21,302 nucleotides of DNA from a virus. The DNA is taken from IMG/VR virus record IMGVR_UViG_3300017963_002035, positions 1-21,302 of that record; one strand, 5' to 3'. The notes under the pieces are model-generated. The model was given only the letters and a program-made list of their open reading frames with translations. It was not told where the DNA came from and made no database searches. Within the stretch, counting starts at the first letter, position 1. The number at the start of each line of letters is the position of its first letter. Below are positions 5,144 through 20,654 of this stretch, one piece after another. A program made the position numbers and the translations under genes.

Positions 5144-5886
5144 GTGCAGCACTACTATCCAAGATCGCACCGTTGCTCAACAAGGCCATTCCGATCGGCA
5201 TGGCTGCGAATCAAATCAGCAAGGTGGATCCACGACTAAAACGCTTTTTAGCTGGCGCTGTAGCGTCTGGGTACGGCCTAGAGCAGGCCATGGAGCAGCT
5301 CAGGGGACTAACTTCCGACCCAGGACAGCGGAGCCAACAGGCTAGAGAGAGGCAAGCAGCCGCACAGGGAACAGCATTGCCATCCGAAAAGGCTAGAGTA
5401 AGAGAGCGTGAAGACGAAGCTAAAGGCGCAAGTGTACTGCGTGGTGGTGTCCAGTTAGCAGCCGGCGCGGCGCTGGCCGGAGCCGGGCCGATGGGCGCTA
5501 TTGGATCACTGTTGGGTATAGGTGGTGGTGGTGATGGATCAGAAACCATGTCACAGGCTCCAGCGGCAGACGGTCGCAACTACTTCCAGCGGGCTATGGA
5601 GGGCGTCAGCTTCTTTGACCTTGATGATGGTCTTAAGGCCAAGGTGGGCAGCCTCAAGCAGCGTCTAGACAGCATGGAACAGCAGGGTGTCCCCTACGAG
5701 GACCGCAGCGTGCAGAACGTGGTCAAGGCTATGCGCCAGCTCGTAGGACAGCAAGGGATGGTAGAGCAGGAGTCAGCACGCTTTGAGATGGGACAGCCCC
5801 AGCAGATGGGTGGGCAACAAGGCGGTAACGCCGATGAGCAGGCTATCGCCATCCTCCAACAGATAGCCCAGAGGTTCGGACTATAG
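5140..5886 (+). CDS. putative ejection-type protein with glycine-rich hydrophobic segment
   Basis: This 248-aa product is coupled to the preceding gene by an ATGA overlap. It opens with short hydrophobic helices (ALLSKIAPLLNKAIPIGMAA) and has a strongly charged middle (residues about 60-100). A hydrophobic Gly/Ala stretch at about 104-128 (LAAGAALAGAGPMGAIGSLL) could insert in a membrane. The C-terminus is very rich in Gln, Met and Gly and ends in a helix (EQAIAILQQIAQRFGL). Such a composition fits a protein that is ejected with DNA and interacts with the host envelope. This is inference from context. No known domain is recognised. Confidence 0.6.
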   Translation: MSAALLSKIAPLLNKAIPIGMAANQISKVDPRLKRFLAGAVASGYGLEQAMEQLRGLTSDPGQRSQQARERQAAAQGTALPSEKARVREREDEAKGASVLRGGVQLAAGAALAGAGPMGAIGSLLGIGGGGDGSETMSQAPAADGRNYFQRAMEGVSFFDLDDGLKAKVGSLKQRLDSMEQQGVPYEDRSVQNVVKAMRQLVGQQGMVEQESARFEMGQPQQMGGQQGGNADEQAIAILQQIAQRFGL

Positions 5887-12937: not shown

Positions 12938-13041
12938 GTCATAGGAATGTCCGAAATACGGACAATTCGGACACATGTCTGGCCGTATTGTGTACATGAT
13001 AGCCGTATCATGCACAAAATACGGCCAATCCTATGCATGAC
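12938..13041. repeat. nested inverted-repeat structure in a 171-nt intergenic gap
   Basis: The gap 12931-13101 is full of symmetry. A central hairpin pairs 12981-13001 with 13006-13026 (21-nt arms, 19 matches, loop GCCG). To its left, TGTCCG 12948-12953 pairs with CGGACA 12959-12964, and TGTCCGAA 12948-12955 can alternatively pair with TTCGGACA 12966-12973. An outer stem brings CATAGGAAT 12940-12948 against AATCCTATG 13027-13035 (8 of 9). There is no T run, so it is not a simple terminator. It may be an operator, a structured leader RNA, a replication start or a miniature mobile element; the sequence does not decide. Confidence 0.7.
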
Positions 13042-16738: not shown

Positions 16739-16950
16739 TAGTCTACTTCCCAACTCCATGGCTGATATGGCTGCCCACCAGTGTCGAGCTGCCAATCATG
16801 GACATGCGCTAGGCCATTCGACAAGCCGCAGTTGTCGCACACTCCTGGGGTGACTGTCGCTACATGGCCTTCCGGCCACATGCCGCCGAGCGATATCGCG
16901 CAGGTACGGCAGATATAGCTAAGCTTCTTCTCCTTATTCTTCTTCGCCAT
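16738..16950 (-). CDS. zinc-ribbon protein, paralogue B
   Basis: A 70-aa protein with a basic N-terminus (AKKNKEKKLSYICRTCAISL) and two CxxC pairs at 14/17 and 38/41, separated exactly as in its downstream neighbour. It shares with that neighbour the C-x-T-C-A-x-x-L-G-G block, the C-D-x-C-G block and H/V-x-D-W-x-L...G-x-P. The start overlaps the end of the 17257 gene by 17 nt. It is a small zinc-ribbon protein, possibly a nucleic-acid or protein adaptor in replication. No catalytic motif is seen. Confidence 0.6.
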   Translation of the reverse strand: MAKKNKEKKLSYICRTCAISLGGMWPEGHVATVTPGVCDNCGLSNGLAHVHDWQLDTGGQPYQPWSWEVD

Positions 16951-17257
16951 TCTTACGCCTCTTCGCTGCGTCCATCATCTTCGTCACGAGATCGAACGCC
17001 TCGATATTCGTTTTCAGCTGATCGGCAACGCGCCCATACATATCGTCGATCATGATATGTATCTTCCTGGGTGTTAGCTTCAACCGTAGACACGATATCA
17101 AAAACAAATTACTTACGGTAGTTAGGATAGCTAAATCTGCCACGGAGGGAGGAATTTCGCGCGTCTCGATCTCATCGACGGCGTAGGCCGTGAGGCCGAC
17201 AAAGCGGTGCATCATCCCCTCGGCTATCTCCTGAATGTCCTTGTCATACTGTCCCAT
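16934..17257 (-). CDS. helical hypothetical protein
   Basis: I set the start at ATG 17257, which has AGAGGAG about 5 nt upstream; the longer open frame to 17368 runs through the tnpB left-end hairpins. The 107-aa protein is mainly helical (YDKDIQEIAEGMMHRFVGLT, then a hydrophobic but not clearly membrane-spanning VADLAILTTVSNLFLISCLR) with a basic, then acidic C-terminus (AAKRRKNGEEE). No family is recognised. It is the first gene downstream of the inserted tnpB. Its supply of transcript may depend on read-through across that insertion. Confidence 0.55.
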   Translation of the reverse strand: MGQYDKDIQEIAEGMMHRFVGLTAYAVDEIETREIPPSVADLAILTTVSNLFLISCLRLKLTPRKIHIMIDDMYGRVADQLKTNIEAFDLVTKMMDAAKRRKNGEEE

Positions 17258-17271
17258 CGGTCTCCTCTGAA

Positions 17272-17289
17272 GCCCGCACGGATGCGGGC
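17272..17289. repeat. left-end hairpin near the tnpB element boundary
   Basis: GCCCGCA 17272-17278 and TGCGGGC 17283-17289 form a perfect 7-bp stem with loop CGGA. A second weaker hairpin follows, GCCTC 17300-17304 with GAGGC, and TGC/GCA inside it. IS200/IS605-type elements carry subterminal hairpins at their ends, and this one lies between a - strand ribosome site and the tnpB promoter. The exact element end cannot be fixed from the sequence alone. Confidence 0.45.
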
Positions 17290-17331
17290 GACCCCCAAGC
17301 CTCGGTTGCGAAGCAGAGAGGCGGAAAGGGC

Positions 17332-17368
17332 TTGAAACATGCGGCGGCGTGTGGTATGATGATATCAT
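17332..17368 (+). promoter_or_regulatory. strong sigma70-like promoter of tnpB with palindrome
   Basis: TTGAAA 17332-17337 and TATGAT 17355-17360 are spaced by exactly 17 nt. The start of transcription would be near 17367, leaving only about 12 nt before the ATG at 17378. A perfect palindrome, ATGATATCAT at 17359-17368, overlaps the -10 and start point, a place where a repressor (perhaps TnpB itself) could act. No clear ribosome site fits, so translation may be near-leaderless and weak. Confidence 0.6.
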
Positions 17369-17377
17369 AGTGAGTCC

Positions 17378-18508
17378 ATGATGAAAGCATTTAAATTTAG
17401 AATCTATCCCAACTTAAGACAGCGGCGGCAACTCTCCAAGGATATTGGATGTGCTAGGTACGTATATAATTGGGGTATTGACCGGCGACGTGAACACTAC
17501 GCCGAATCAGGCAAACACTTTTCGACGGCCGAGCTTAGCCGCCTACTTACGAAGACCAAGGACTCACTATCTTTCCTTCAGGGCGCTAGCTCGACCGTCC
17601 TTGTTAACTCCCTCTGGGCACTCGACGAGGCATACGGACGATTCTTCAAAAAACTGGCTCGATATCCCCGCCGAAAGAGCCGTCGGTCCAAGAGGTCGTC
17701 CTCTTACCAGATGGACAAGCGCCGTGGAGATAAGATCTTCATCGATGGTCAAAAACTCGTCCTTCCACGACTCGGCCCTATGCGCGTCGTATGGTCTAAG
17801 TCAGTTCCAGCGATGCCAAACAGCGTGACGGTTTCCCAGGAGGCCGACGGCTCATGGTACGCATCGCTACAAGTCGACTGTAAGTGCACAGTAGACGCAC
17901 CGCCGAGCTGCCAAGAAATAGGTCTAGACCTAGGACTAACCGATTTTGTCACCACCAGCGACGGCGACAAGATCAAGCCCCTTCGACCGTATCGCAACGG
18001 ACGAGCCAAGATTAAAAAGCTAGCTCGTCATATGTGCCGGAAGAAAAAAGGATCAAAGAACAGACAAAAAGCGCGTAAGAAGCTCGGAAAAACCCAGGTT
18101 CGGATAGCCCGACAGCGGCGCGACTTCCTGCACCAGACAAGTACCTCGATCGTACGCCGACACCGGCTCATAGCGATTGAGGACCTCTCGGTGTCCGGCA
18201 TGATGGCCAATGGAAAACTCGCGCAGAGCATCGGTGACGCAGGGTGGTATGAGTTTCGGCGGCAACTCGAATATAAGTGTGCCTGGTATAGGCGTGATCT
18301 TGTGGTAATTGGACGGTTCGAGCCGACAAGCAAGACATGCTCATGCTGCGGGCACAAGCTAGATGAGCTAAGCTTAAGCGAGCGAGCATGGAGATGCCCA
18401 AGCTGTGGGGCGGTGCATGATCGGGATGTGAATGCCGCGCGTAATATTTTGAACACCGCGAGGAGCGCGGGAAGAGCTTGTGGAGCAGACGGAAGACCGA
18501 AGGCGTAA
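17378..18508 (+). CDS. tnpB: TnpB RNA-guided nuclease (IS200/IS605 OrfB)
   Basis: The 376-aa protein has full family length and order. It runs from an N-terminal MKAFKFRIYPNLRQRRQLSK and a GCARYVYNWGIDRR helix through a basic Arg/Lys region (R98-R107). Next comes RuvC-I with D184 in IGLDLGLTDF, then RuvC-II with E268 in LIAIEDLSVSG. The zinc finger has C321/C324 and C340/C343, and RuvC-III has D350 in HDRDVNAARNIL. All three acidic residues are present, so the nuclease looks intact. TnpB proteins cut DNA using a guide RNA made from the element's 3' end. It lies opposite to the surrounding - operon, and no TnpA gene is in the window. It may be a stranded IS or a phage-kept nuclease. Either ATG (17378 or 17381) can start it. 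Confidence 0.92.
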   Translation: MMKAFKFRIYPNLRQRRQLSKDIGCARYVYNWGIDRRREHYAESGKHFSTAELSRLLTKTKDSLSFLQGASSTVLVNSLWALDEAYGRFFKKLARYPRRKSRRSKRSSSYQMDKRRGDKIFIDGQKLVLPRLGPMRVVWSKSVPAMPNSVTVSQEADGSWYASLQVDCKCTVDAPPSCQEIGLDLGLTDFVTTSDGDKIKPLRPYRNGRAKIKKLARHMCRKKKGSKNRQKARKKLGKTQVRIARQRRDFLHQTSTSIVRRHRLIAIEDLSVSGMMANGKLAQSIGDAGWYEFRRQLEYKCAWYRRDLVVIGRFEPTSKTCSCCGHKLDELSLSERAWRCPSCGAVHDRDVNAARNILNTARSAGRACGADGRPKA

Positions 18509-18603
18509 GCTAACGGCGGTCTGTGTTGAAGCAGGAAAAGCGCAGCCAGCGAGGCACACGATGTGCCGACCCTATGCCGGTATTCCCGCCAGGGCGCTAG
18601 GCG
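18440..18603 (+). ncRNA. putative omega (guide) RNA region and right end of the tnpB unit
   Basis: The last part of tnpB and the 95 nt after its stop are dense in hairpins: CCGCG/CGCGG (18456-18460 / 18466-18470), GGCACA/TGTGCC (18553-18558 / 18562-18567), and GCTAACG just after the stop, which can pair with CGTTAGC near 18600. In known TnpB elements the omega RNA covers exactly this region and continues past the right end into flanking DNA, which supplies the guide. Ends are approximate. If this holds, the guide would come from the first about 15-20 nt after the element end, near 18604-18625. Confidence 0.4.
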
Positions 18604-18993
18604 TTAGCCGCCGACTCCGATTGGACCATGTCGGAGAGAGTGTAGCCATCGCATCAGGCGTGCGTCCAGCTCGCCCCAACTGTCCATGGCGTCTTGGACC
18701 GTGTCGGACTTCGTCTTCATGTCCTCGCGCCCAATCAGCTCGGTACAAGCTTGAAATGTCGCGAACCAGTCGTCACCTATCGTTGGTAGCTGCCTTTCTA
18801 GATGCTCCCATCCGTCCGAACCATCGGGAATCGTGCGGATGATGTGTTGAACCTTTCCCCAGTCGCCAGGAAGGTCATCTATGGCCTGCGCCATAAAGCG
18901 CGCATCATCGACGTCTTTATGTAGCGTAGCCAGGACGGTCGCCATCACAGCCATCTGTTTGGCGCTCGGTTTTTCGGCGGAGGTATGGTTCAT
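18604..18993 (-). CDS. hypothetical early protein
   Basis: I start at ATG 18993 (MNHTSAEKPSAKQMAVMATV), giving 129 aa; the longer frame up to 19185 would overlap almost all of the preceding gene. The product is helical and acidic (DDARFMAQAIDDLPGDWGKV, IPDGSDGWEHLERQLPTIGD). No known family is recognised. Its 3' end abuts the presumed right end of the tnpB unit, so the last codons may have been changed by the insertion. The 5' end overlaps the 18917 gene by 77 nt out of frame. Confidence 0.5.
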   Translation of the reverse strand: MNHTSAEKPSAKQMAVMATVLATLHKDVDDARFMAQAIDDLPGDWGKVQHIIRTIPDGSDGWEHLERQLPTIGDDWFATFQACTELIGREDMKTKSDTVQDAMDSWGELDARLMRWLHSLRHGPIGVGG

Positions 18994-19222
18994 ACGTCTC
19001 TCTGTGATAATGGAGTTGAAGGGCTTCCATGGCTCTGCTTGCTTCGTCATAGCTGGAATAGGCACCCAGAATGACCCAGTGGCTGGTCCTTGGGGGCCAC
19101 GACATCTCGGCATGTACATGCTGAATGTGTCGAGCCAAGGTGGACATATGCCATCGCGCGAGTACTTCAGCATCTTCGTTTCCAATATTGTATTCCACCA
19201 CCCATATATCTTTAGTCTTCAT
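18917..19222 (-). CDS. hypothetical early protein
   Basis: A 101-aa protein whose ATG overlaps the helicase stop by 11 nt; AGAGG lies about 8 nt upstream. Beta then alpha texture: KTKDIWVVEYNIGNEDAEVL, WVILGAYSSYDEASRAMEAL, then a His-rich helix. The last about 25 residues run out of frame through the next gene's start. The EAxxAMxxxxxxHxR motif resembles one in the 15918 protein. No function can be given. Direct coupling to the helicase suggests a replication-linked role, which is inference. Confidence 0.5.
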   Translation of the reverse strand: MKTKDIWVVEYNIGNEDAEVLARWHMSTLARHIQHVHAEMSWPPRTSHWVILGAYSSYDEASRAMEALQLHYHRETYEPYLRRKTERQTDGCDGDRPGYAT

Positions 19223-20654
19223 GTAATCCTCTCAACTGTCGGTCAAAGGCTTCTGCATCCGCCTGCGATTTGTTTATTTCATTCATATGATCCTCAATCG
19301 TAGTCGGCACTTCGGTGATGTCGGCTGTTTCTTTGTTGTAATATGCAATTATTTGTCCCGTTTCCCTGTCTCGATTTTTTTTGATTAAATACCTGGTGTA
19401 TCCAGGCTCAATACTAGGATCGAAATATTCCTTACGCCATGGAAGAATAATGACGTCCGCATCCTGCTCTAGATAGCCGGACTCACGAAGGTGCCATATC
19501 TGTGGTTCCGTCTTGTTGATATCCGTGATACTCCTGTCGGGTCTCGACATCTGAGCTGCACTGACGACGCAGATGTCGAGCTCCTTGGCTAGTGCTTTGA
19601 GTCCCTGCGAGTTCTCGCTGACAGCTTCGTAGTAGTTCTTGGTGCCCATGGGCGCGACGAGCTTCTGCACATAGTCGAGATAGATCACGTCGAGCCTATC
19701 CTGCGCCATGAGCTGCAAAGCCTTATGACGTAAAGAGGCGAGGCTGATGCGCCCAGCGTCAAGGATCATGCAGTTGCTCTCAAACGCCCTCGCCTTGGCG
19801 TAGTTCTCCATGATGCGAGTCTGCTCTTCCTTGGTAAACTTGCCCGACCCTATCTTGGCTGGGTGCACGGAAGAGAGAATGCCGATGATCCTGGTAGCAA
19901 GCTTCACATCGGACATTTCTAGGCTGACATAAATACTTTTGACTCCCCTGATAGCACCACGAGCCATCCACTGGCATAAAAGCTCGGATTTTCCGGTTCC
20001 AGGCATCGCCCCAATCACTACAAGATCTTTAGGTTGAAGACCAAGGAGGTAGCCGTCAAAACTGTTAAAACCCGTGGTCGGGCCGTGCATGGCCGTGATG
20101 CCACGCTCGGCGTTTTCCCTTCGTTCGGTCAAGGATGCGTCAAAAGCTTCTGCGTCGCCAAGGATATCGGTGAGGGTCTTGAGCCGCAGCTGCTCGGTGC
20201 CACCTGTCAGCCCAGCTAGTTGCTCGTGAACCTCGTCAAGAATGTTATCCTCATGCTCGTCGGAGCTGATCGCCTTGAGAACACCATTCGACATGAGGAC
20301 AAGAGACCGACGGCAGTATAGGCGTGATAGTGCATCAAGAGCATCGCCTACGGGCAGCTTGCGGTAGTTAGCATCAAGACTATGAAGACGTTCAAAACCG
20401 CCAGCAGCCTTGGCATTGGCCTCCCGCTGTAGGTGCTCGAAGACCGCGCGGGGGGAGGGGTAATGCCTATTAGTGTAGAACGATTTGAGCGCATCAAATA
20501 GTGCCTGGTTCTCCGGCCATAGGAACCAGGTGCGCTTGGCGCGGCTGAATACCTCCTCCAGTCGTGGGCGCGAGGACAGGCACGCGCCCAGAATGGAGTC
20601 TTCGCACTCTTTACCCTGCTTGGAGTCGCCAGGGAGTTTATTTAGCTTCGCCAT
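19212..20654 (-). CDS. DnaB-type replicative DNA helicase
   Basis: The 480-aa protein has normal DnaB length. Its N-terminal helical domain spans about residues 1-155. The RecA-type ATPase domain follows: Walker A GAMPGTGKS 215-223, SLEMS 244-248, Walker B in LDVIYLDYVQ 321-330, an SAAQMSR segment 365-371 (canonical S-Q-L-S/N-R), LRESGYLEQDADVI 389-402, and KNRDRETG 426-433 with the arginine-finger loop. It unwinds DNA at the phage fork as a hexameric ring. Upstream is a 17-nt overlap with the small HTH gene; downstream an 11-nt overlap with the 18917 gene. No fused primase is seen, so host primase or a gene outside the window is needed. Confidence 0.93.
   Translation of the reverse strand: MAKLNKLPGDSKQGKECEDSILGACLSSRPRLEEVFSRAKRTWFLWPENQALFDALKSFYTNRHYPSPRAVFEHLQREANAKAAGGFERLHSLDANYRKLPVGDALDALSRLYCRRSLVLMSNGVLKAISSDEHEDNILDEVHEQLAGLTGGTEQLRLKTLTDILGDAEAFDASLTERRENAERGITAMHGPTTGFNSFDGYLLGLQPKDLVVIGAMPGTGKSELLCQWMARGAIRGVKSIYVSLEMSDVKLATRIIGILSSVHPAKIGSGKFTKEEQTRIMENYAKARAFESNCMILDAGRISLASLRHKALQLMAQDRLDVIYLDYVQKLVAPMGTKNYYEAVSENSQGLKALAKELDICVVSAAQMSRPDRSITDINKTEPQIWHLRESGYLEQDADVIILPWRKEYFDPSIEPGYTRYLIKKNRDRETGQIIAYYNKETADITEVPTTIEDHMNEINKSQADAEAFDRQLRGLHED

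What the first reader, a model, noticed from the sequence alone, without database searches (positions are those of the whole stretch)
17270..18625. Intact TnpB unit inserted against the replication operon, perhaps a self-homing nuclease
TnpB with all RuvC acidic residues (D184, E268, D350) and zinc cysteines lies between two early genes, reversed. It has its own promoter, left-end hairpins and a hairpin-rich 3' region, and no TnpA is in the window. If the 3' region makes an omega RNA, its guide would come from DNA just past the right end. That DNA is phage replication-operon sequence, so the nuclease would target the empty site in competing relatives, a homing-like or phage-exclusion device.
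Basis: partly seen in the sequence, partly recalled or inferred. Interest (0 to 1): 0.62.

Follow-up and report, generated by a model that had tools for sequence, protein, structure and literature searches.

The report
Phage TnpB unit with guide RNA
A phage carries an intact RNA-guided DNA-cutting gene (TnpB) with a recognisable guide RNA whose guide most likely comes from the phage's own neighbouring gene, so it probably cuts copies of that spot lacking the element; this is an ordinary kind of selfish element, with an unusually changed right end.

Summary
An intact TnpB (376 aa) lies at 17378-18508 (+), against an early gene cluster, with no TnpA or serine recombinase in the record. The 3' region is a real omega RNA: a covariance model built without the window finds 18476-18537 as its only hit (48.3 bits, E 1.7e-8), and two of its stems covary strongly across relatives.

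The right end is unusual. 29 of 31 other viral TnpBs with this RNA core have GT(T)CA[ACT] there; the window does not. In relatives the loop of the first hairpin pairs with the bases just before the guide. In the window that loop is AGGAG, and its only full Watson-Crick partner, CTCC at 18615-18618, directly follows a hairpin (shuffles 0.5-1.1%).

The empty site, left end and TAM could not be found, because the flanking genes have no detectable relatives. Mycobacteriophages show the scenario is real: one 99% identical TnpB-only unit sits at three sites, and relatives lacking it at one site carry the exact scarless TTAC-plus-guide sequence. Homing is therefore likely but unproven here; exclusion of rivals is inference.

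The parts
17378..18508 (+). TnpB, 376 aa, intact RuvC (D184, E268, D350) and zinc-ribbon cysteines (C321, C324, C340, C343)
   Evidence: Pfam, PDB sequence match to ISDra2 TnpB E 1e-65, alignment of 23 relatives, AlphaFold pLDDT 88 with Foldseek best hits ISFba1 TnpB (TM 0.83) and ISDra2 TnpB
17332..17360 (+). sigma-70-like promoter TTGAAA-17-TATGAT ahead of tnpB
   Evidence: consensus match 10 of 12 with a TG before the -10; not above chance by count alone
17272..17289 (+). hairpin GCCCGCA-CGGA-TGCGGGC, possible left-end hairpin
   Evidence: fold -13.8 kcal/mol; no similarity to the right-end region, so unproven
18456..18470 (+). omega RNA stem 1, CCGCG(AGGAG)CGCGG; loop bases 18462-18465 form the pseudoknot
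   Evidence: equivalent hairpin with a 5-nt loop upstream of the core in nearly all relatives; corresponds to stem 1 of ISDra2 omega RNA (PMC10097598)
18476..18537 (+). omega RNA core; stem 2 (18477-18480 / 18532-18535) and stem 3a (18485-18490 / 18519-18524); overlaps the tnpB stop codon
   Evidence: model R1 built without the window: 48.3 bits, E 1.7e-8, only hit; covariation of both stems on 46 sequences
18593..18612 (+). predicted omega RNA stem 4, GGCGCTA-GGCGT-TAGC(C)GCC
   Evidence: 2 nt before the pseudoknot strand as in ISDra2; hairpin plus CTCC in 0.45% of shuffles; the minimum-energy fold prefers an alternative pairing
18615..18620 (+). predicted pre-guide strand CTCCGA; CTCC pairs with stem-1 loop GGAG; predicted right end of the element
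   Evidence: only full Watson-Crick pseudoknot partner within 110 nt; pseudoknot covariation in 40 relatives
18621..18636 (+). predicted guide TTGGACCATGTCGGAG (start uncertain by 1-2 nt), lying in the 3' end of gene A
   Evidence: follows the predicted right end; in the mycobacteriophage unit the same rule gives the exact border
18604..18993 (-). gene A, early gene of unknown function; its last 5-6 codons would be element-derived if the right end is at 18620
   Evidence: ORF; no relatives found
16934..17257 (-). gene B, early gene of unknown function with its own AGGAG ribosome site
   Evidence: ORF and Shine-Dalgarno; no relatives
19212..20654 (-). DnaB-like replicative helicase, defines the replication cluster
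   Evidence: Pfam DnaB_C and PHROG 19

Best explanation
It is a TnpB-only selfish unit of the IS200/IS605 kind lodged in a phage early operon. TnpB is made from its own promoter. The end of the same transcript folds into an omega RNA: stems 1, 2, 3a and 4 plus a pseudoknot between the stem-1 loop and the bases before the guide. The roughly 16 nt after about 18620, which belong to neighbouring gene A, become the guide. The complex would cut DNA that has a TAM directly followed by this sequence, which is the uninterrupted site, so copies or co-infecting relatives without the unit are cut and repaired from the unit-bearing copy. The resident copy is spared because the unit separates TAM from target. 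Shown: intact protein, omega RNA core, covarying stems and pseudoknot rule, guide-bearing DNA of phage origin. Inferred: exact right end, TAM, cleavage, homing. The unit probably cannot move by itself, since no transposase is present and the usual TCA right-end motif is lost.
For: Intact catalytic and zinc residues; structure model matches ISFba1 and ISDra2 TnpB bound to guide RNA; independent omega RNA hit E 1.7e-8; stem covariation 95.4% paired, 0 of 500 shuffles; pseudoknot rule in 40 relatives, 90.6% paired, 0 of 5000 shuffles; window CTCC plus hairpin in 0.45-1.1% of shuffles; scarless TnpB-only unit in mycobacteriophages with TTAC/TCAC on the left and exact empty sites in relatives.
Against: No empty-site relative for this phage; left end and TAM unknown; right-end motif differs from 29 of 31 other viral relatives, which could mean a decaying unit; overall folding energy ordinary and the minimum-energy fold does not contain stem 4; predicted target absent from other viral contigs by exact match; TnpB sequence is a long branch and an IS607-type origin is not rejected (p 0.37).
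Confidence: 0.62

Rival explanations
1. Decaying insertion: TnpB is still intact but the transposon ends have eroded. It is a random passenger with no useful guide and no homing, on its way to loss.
For: No transposase; no canonical right end, no TTAC/TCAC/TTGAT near the left end; TnpB present in only 1 of 50 records of the same tail-gene lineage, and that one unrelated.
Against: Full-length ORF with all catalytic residues, and an omega RNA whose loop and pre-guide strand appear to have changed together rather than decayed; many relatives in phages also lack an obvious TnpA yet remain intact units.
Confidence: 0.2
2. Domesticated phage nuclease: the unit lost its transposon ends and is kept because it cuts element-free competitors (phage exclusion), a benefit to the phage rather than to the element.
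For: Lost right-end motif with a compensated pseudoknot; guide drawn from phage early-gene DNA; a second viral TnpB (L145) also has the RNA core without the usual ends.
Against: No vertical conservation in the phage lineage; no competitor carrying the target found.
Confidence: 0.12
3. IS607-type unit: TnpB derived from an element moved by a serine recombinase, whose right end has no TCA motif.
For: Relatives L026-L028, L033 and L039 form a group with serine recombinases upstream in L027 and L028, most with right ends without GTCAA; grouping with the window not rejected.
Against: Free trees put the window with the IS605-type rows; no recombinase present; the known IS607 TAM AGGAG (PMC11061315) is not on the correct strand at the left flank.
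Confidence: 0.06

Closest known systems
ISDra2 TnpB and its omega RNA (IS200/IS605)
   Same: Domain order, RuvC and zinc residues, fold; RNA with stem 1, stem 2, stem 3a, stem 4 and a loop-to-pre-guide pseudoknot; guide from the right flank
   Different: About a third identical; no TnpA in the record; pseudoknot strand CUCC in place of the UUC/GUC type; right-end TCA motif absent
TnpB-only unit of Cheoctovirus mycobacteriophages (Rialto, Lizziana, Kimberlium)
   Same: TnpB without transposase inside a phage, same omega RNA core, guide from phage DNA
   Different: Has canonical ends (TTAC/TCAC left, AGTCAA right) and known empty sites; 41% identical protein
TnpB gene drive of IS200/605 in plasmids (PMC11870625)
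   Same: Nuclease aimed at element-free copies of the same site
   Different: Shown by experiment in plasmids; here inferred from sequence in a phage
IS607-type TnpB (ISFba1, PDB 8iaz)
   Same: Best structural match (TM 0.83), RNA-guided nuclease
   Different: TAM AGGAG/GAGGG and serine recombinase partner not found here

Membership tests
TnpB (RNA-guided nuclease of IS200/IS605 and IS607) | RuvC catalytic D, E, D and zinc-ribbon cysteines in an intact ORF | tested here: met
TnpB (RNA-guided nuclease of IS200/IS605 and IS607) | Omega RNA overlapping the 3' end of tnpB | tested here: met
   model built without the window, E 1.7e-8; covariation
TnpB (RNA-guided nuclease of IS200/IS605 and IS607) | RNA-guided, TAM-dependent DNA cleavage | not testable with these tools
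   needs biochemistry
IS200/IS605 element | Right-end hairpin followed by a TCA-type cleavage motif | tested here: not met
   no TCA within 110 nt after the core, against 29 of 31 other viral relatives; replaced by a hairpin plus CTCC
IS200/IS605 element | Left end next to a TTAC/TCAC/TTGAT-like TAM | tested here: inconclusive
   none of these motifs in 17150-17380; TAM of this TnpB unknown
IS200/IS605 element | Y1 TnpA (may be supplied in trans) | tested here: not met
   no PF01797 match in the record
IS607 element | Serine recombinase upstream of tnpB | tested here: not met
   no PF00239 match
Homing-like element | Empty-site alleles with the target in relatives | tested here: inconclusive
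   no relatives of the flanking genes found; met for the mycobacteriophage unit

The most novel reading that the evidence does not exclude
A phage-locked TnpB: transposon ends lost, the omega RNA pseudoknot re-paired (AGGAG with CUCC) so that the nuclease stays active, and the guide fixed on the phage's own early-gene site, kept as a weapon against relatives that lack it.
Probability: 0.13. Interest if true: 0.6.

Novelty: new member of a known kind. Interest (0 to 1): 0.36.

Why it matters
TnpB is common in phage sequences, but its targets are rarely worked out. The loop-to-pre-guide pairing gives a practical way to locate the guide even when the transposon end is not recognisable, and the mycobacteriophage units with known empty sites in cultured phages make phage-to-phage TnpB homing directly testable.

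Tried and rejected
Empty-site search with DnaB, gene A and gene B in viral contigs, phages and 50 related records: no homologs of gene A or gene B; DnaB matches only at about 27-29%. Gene A and gene B as one interrupted gene: possible for a third of border choices, not decidable. IS607-like GG borders: no support beyond chance dinucleotides. Similarity of left and right regions: not significant (p 0.59). Guide region matched to other loci: nothing of 16 nt or more; exact 18-mer not in viral contigs. Rfam at E up to 5: no omega RNA family reported, only chance hits. Overall RNA folding z-score: uninformative. First script for stem 1 had a bounds error, corrected.

Full report
Observation. The window is a 21,302-base IMG/VR virus record. 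TnpB at 17378-18508 (+) is intact, with D184, E268, D350 and the four zinc cysteines. Its closest solved relatives are ISDra2 TnpB by sequence (natural protein E 1e-65) and, by predicted fold (pLDDT 88.4), ISFba1 TnpB and ISDra2 TnpB. It stands against two early genes of unknown function in a cluster with DnaB helicase, Erf and DUF1064 proteins. The record has no Y1 TnpA and no serine recombinase.

The phage. The tail protein at 12-1931 finds at least 134 relatives, many in contigs near 38 kb, at up to about 50% identity. In the 50 tested, replication genes differ: DnaB relatives in 2 of 50 at 27%, and no gene A or gene B in any. Only one of the 50 carries a TnpB-family protein: a complete IS200/IS605 element with TnpA whose TnpB is 27% identical. 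TnpB is thus a sporadic acquisition in this lineage. In the wider databases TnpB is common: relatives in 399 phage records, all below 60% identity, and at least 564 viral stretches.

Omega RNA. Relatives share a motif around and after the tnpB stop codon, GCCTGTGGAGC..GTAAGACC..GAAGCAGGAA. A covariance model from 16 relatives without the window hits the window once, at 18476-18537, with 48.3 bits and E 1.7e-8. It also hits 34 of 72 viral TnpB loci that were fetched afterwards. On 46 sequences two helices, which match stems 2 and 3a of the ISDra2 omega RNA (PMC10097598), are 95.4% paired and exceed all 500 shuffles and all slid versions in covariation. Stem 2 was not part of the model used to align, so it is an independent test.

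Right end. Karvelis et al. (PMC8612924) and the cryo-EM paper place the guide directly after the right end, with a pseudoknot between the stem-1 loop and bases -5 to -3. In nearly all relatives I find a stem-1 hairpin with a 5-nt loop 4-23 nt upstream of the core. Its loop positions 2-5 pair with bases -3 to -6 before the guide: 90.6% of cells in 40 relatives, against 0 of 5000 shuffles, with loop positions 4 and 5 covarying (GGGCT with AGTC, GGGCA with TGTC, GGACG with CGTC, GGAAC with GTTC). 29 of 31 other viral TnpBs with the core carry GT(T)CA[ACT] there; the window has no TCA at all within 110 nt. The window's stem 1 is CCGCG(AGGAG)CGCGG. The rule then asks for CTCC, which occurs once, at 18615-18618, 2 nt after a hairpin (18593-18612). 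CTCC after such a hairpin arises in 0.45% of dinucleotide shuffles, or 1.1% if wobble partners are allowed. The predicted guide is TTGGACCATGTCGGAG from 18621, within 1-2 nt, in the 3' end of gene A. Against this, the minimum-energy fold pairs the stem-4 region differently and the whole region folds no better than shuffles. The rule was worked out on relatives and then applied to the window, but the search for it was made after the canonical end had been found missing, so the shuffle figures should be read with that in mind.

Precedent in cultured phages. One TnpB-only unit (about 1.33 kb, 99% identical) sits in Rialto, Lizziana and Kimberlium at three different places. Left borders are TCAC, TCAC and TTAC, right border AGTCAA. 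The Kimberlium flanks joined in a script match 322 phage records over at least 80% of the 300 nt. Three fetched examples carry the junction TTTAC|CCTCCCGGCATGACG exactly, with no bases gained or lost. So TnpB-only units move in phages, the pseudoknot rule marks their true right border, and related phages carry TAM plus target intact. For Lizziana the joined flanks match in two pieces, so that site is less clean.

How it most likely works. TnpB binds the omega RNA cut from its own transcript and cleaves DNA having a TAM followed by the gene A sequence, which exists contiguously only where the unit is absent. In a co-infected cell this would favour copying the unit into element-free genomes, as proposed for ISDra2 (PMC8612924) and shown as a drive for plasmids (PMC11870625). 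Steps shown: protein, RNA, pairing rule. Steps inferred: right end, TAM, cleavage, homing.

Limits. The left end and the TAM are not fixed. Known TAMs are absent from 17150-17380, and the hairpin at 17272-17289 does not resemble the right end. Tree position is uncertain: with IS605-type rows in free trees, IS607-type not rejected. No virus with the target was found by exact search.

Verdict. A new member of a known kind, with an unusual right end.

Noticed in passing
L136 2384-3716; L143 and L144 601-1933; L226-L228 246-265: A 1.33-kb TnpB-only unit, 99% identical, sits at three different sites in Cheoctovirus mycobacteriophages, after TTAC/TCAC; three fetched relatives have the exact scarless empty site (TTTAC|CCTCCC).
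   Followed up: yes
L145 4001-5215: A second viral TnpB with a strong omega RNA core but no canonical right end; its stem-1 loop GGGTA could pair with TACC at 5210.
   Followed up: partly
window 12977-13030: Near-perfect 25-bp inverted repeat with a tiny loop near the border of rightward structural genes and leftward early genes; perhaps a bidirectional terminator. It surfaced as a chance match to a microRNA family.
   Followed up: no
window 18604-18624: If the element ends at 18620, the last 5-6 codons and the stop of gene A are supplied by the element; for a third of possible left borders gene A would have read in frame into gene B.
   Followed up: partly
L225 1456-2891: Same tail-gene phage lineage, different complete IS200/IS605 element with TnpA and a TnpB only 27% identical: independent acquisition.
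   Followed up: yes
L195 5087-5153 and 6169-6230; L192 5093-5158 and 2022-2087: Two omega RNA cores within one viral contig, suggesting two TnpB-type units close together.
   Followed up: no
window 1-21302 with L054-L133: A widespread uncultivated lineage of phages, many contigs about 38 kb, shares the tail protein (about 41-53%) while the replication modules appear swapped; nearest cultured hits are only 26% over 40%.
   Followed up: partly
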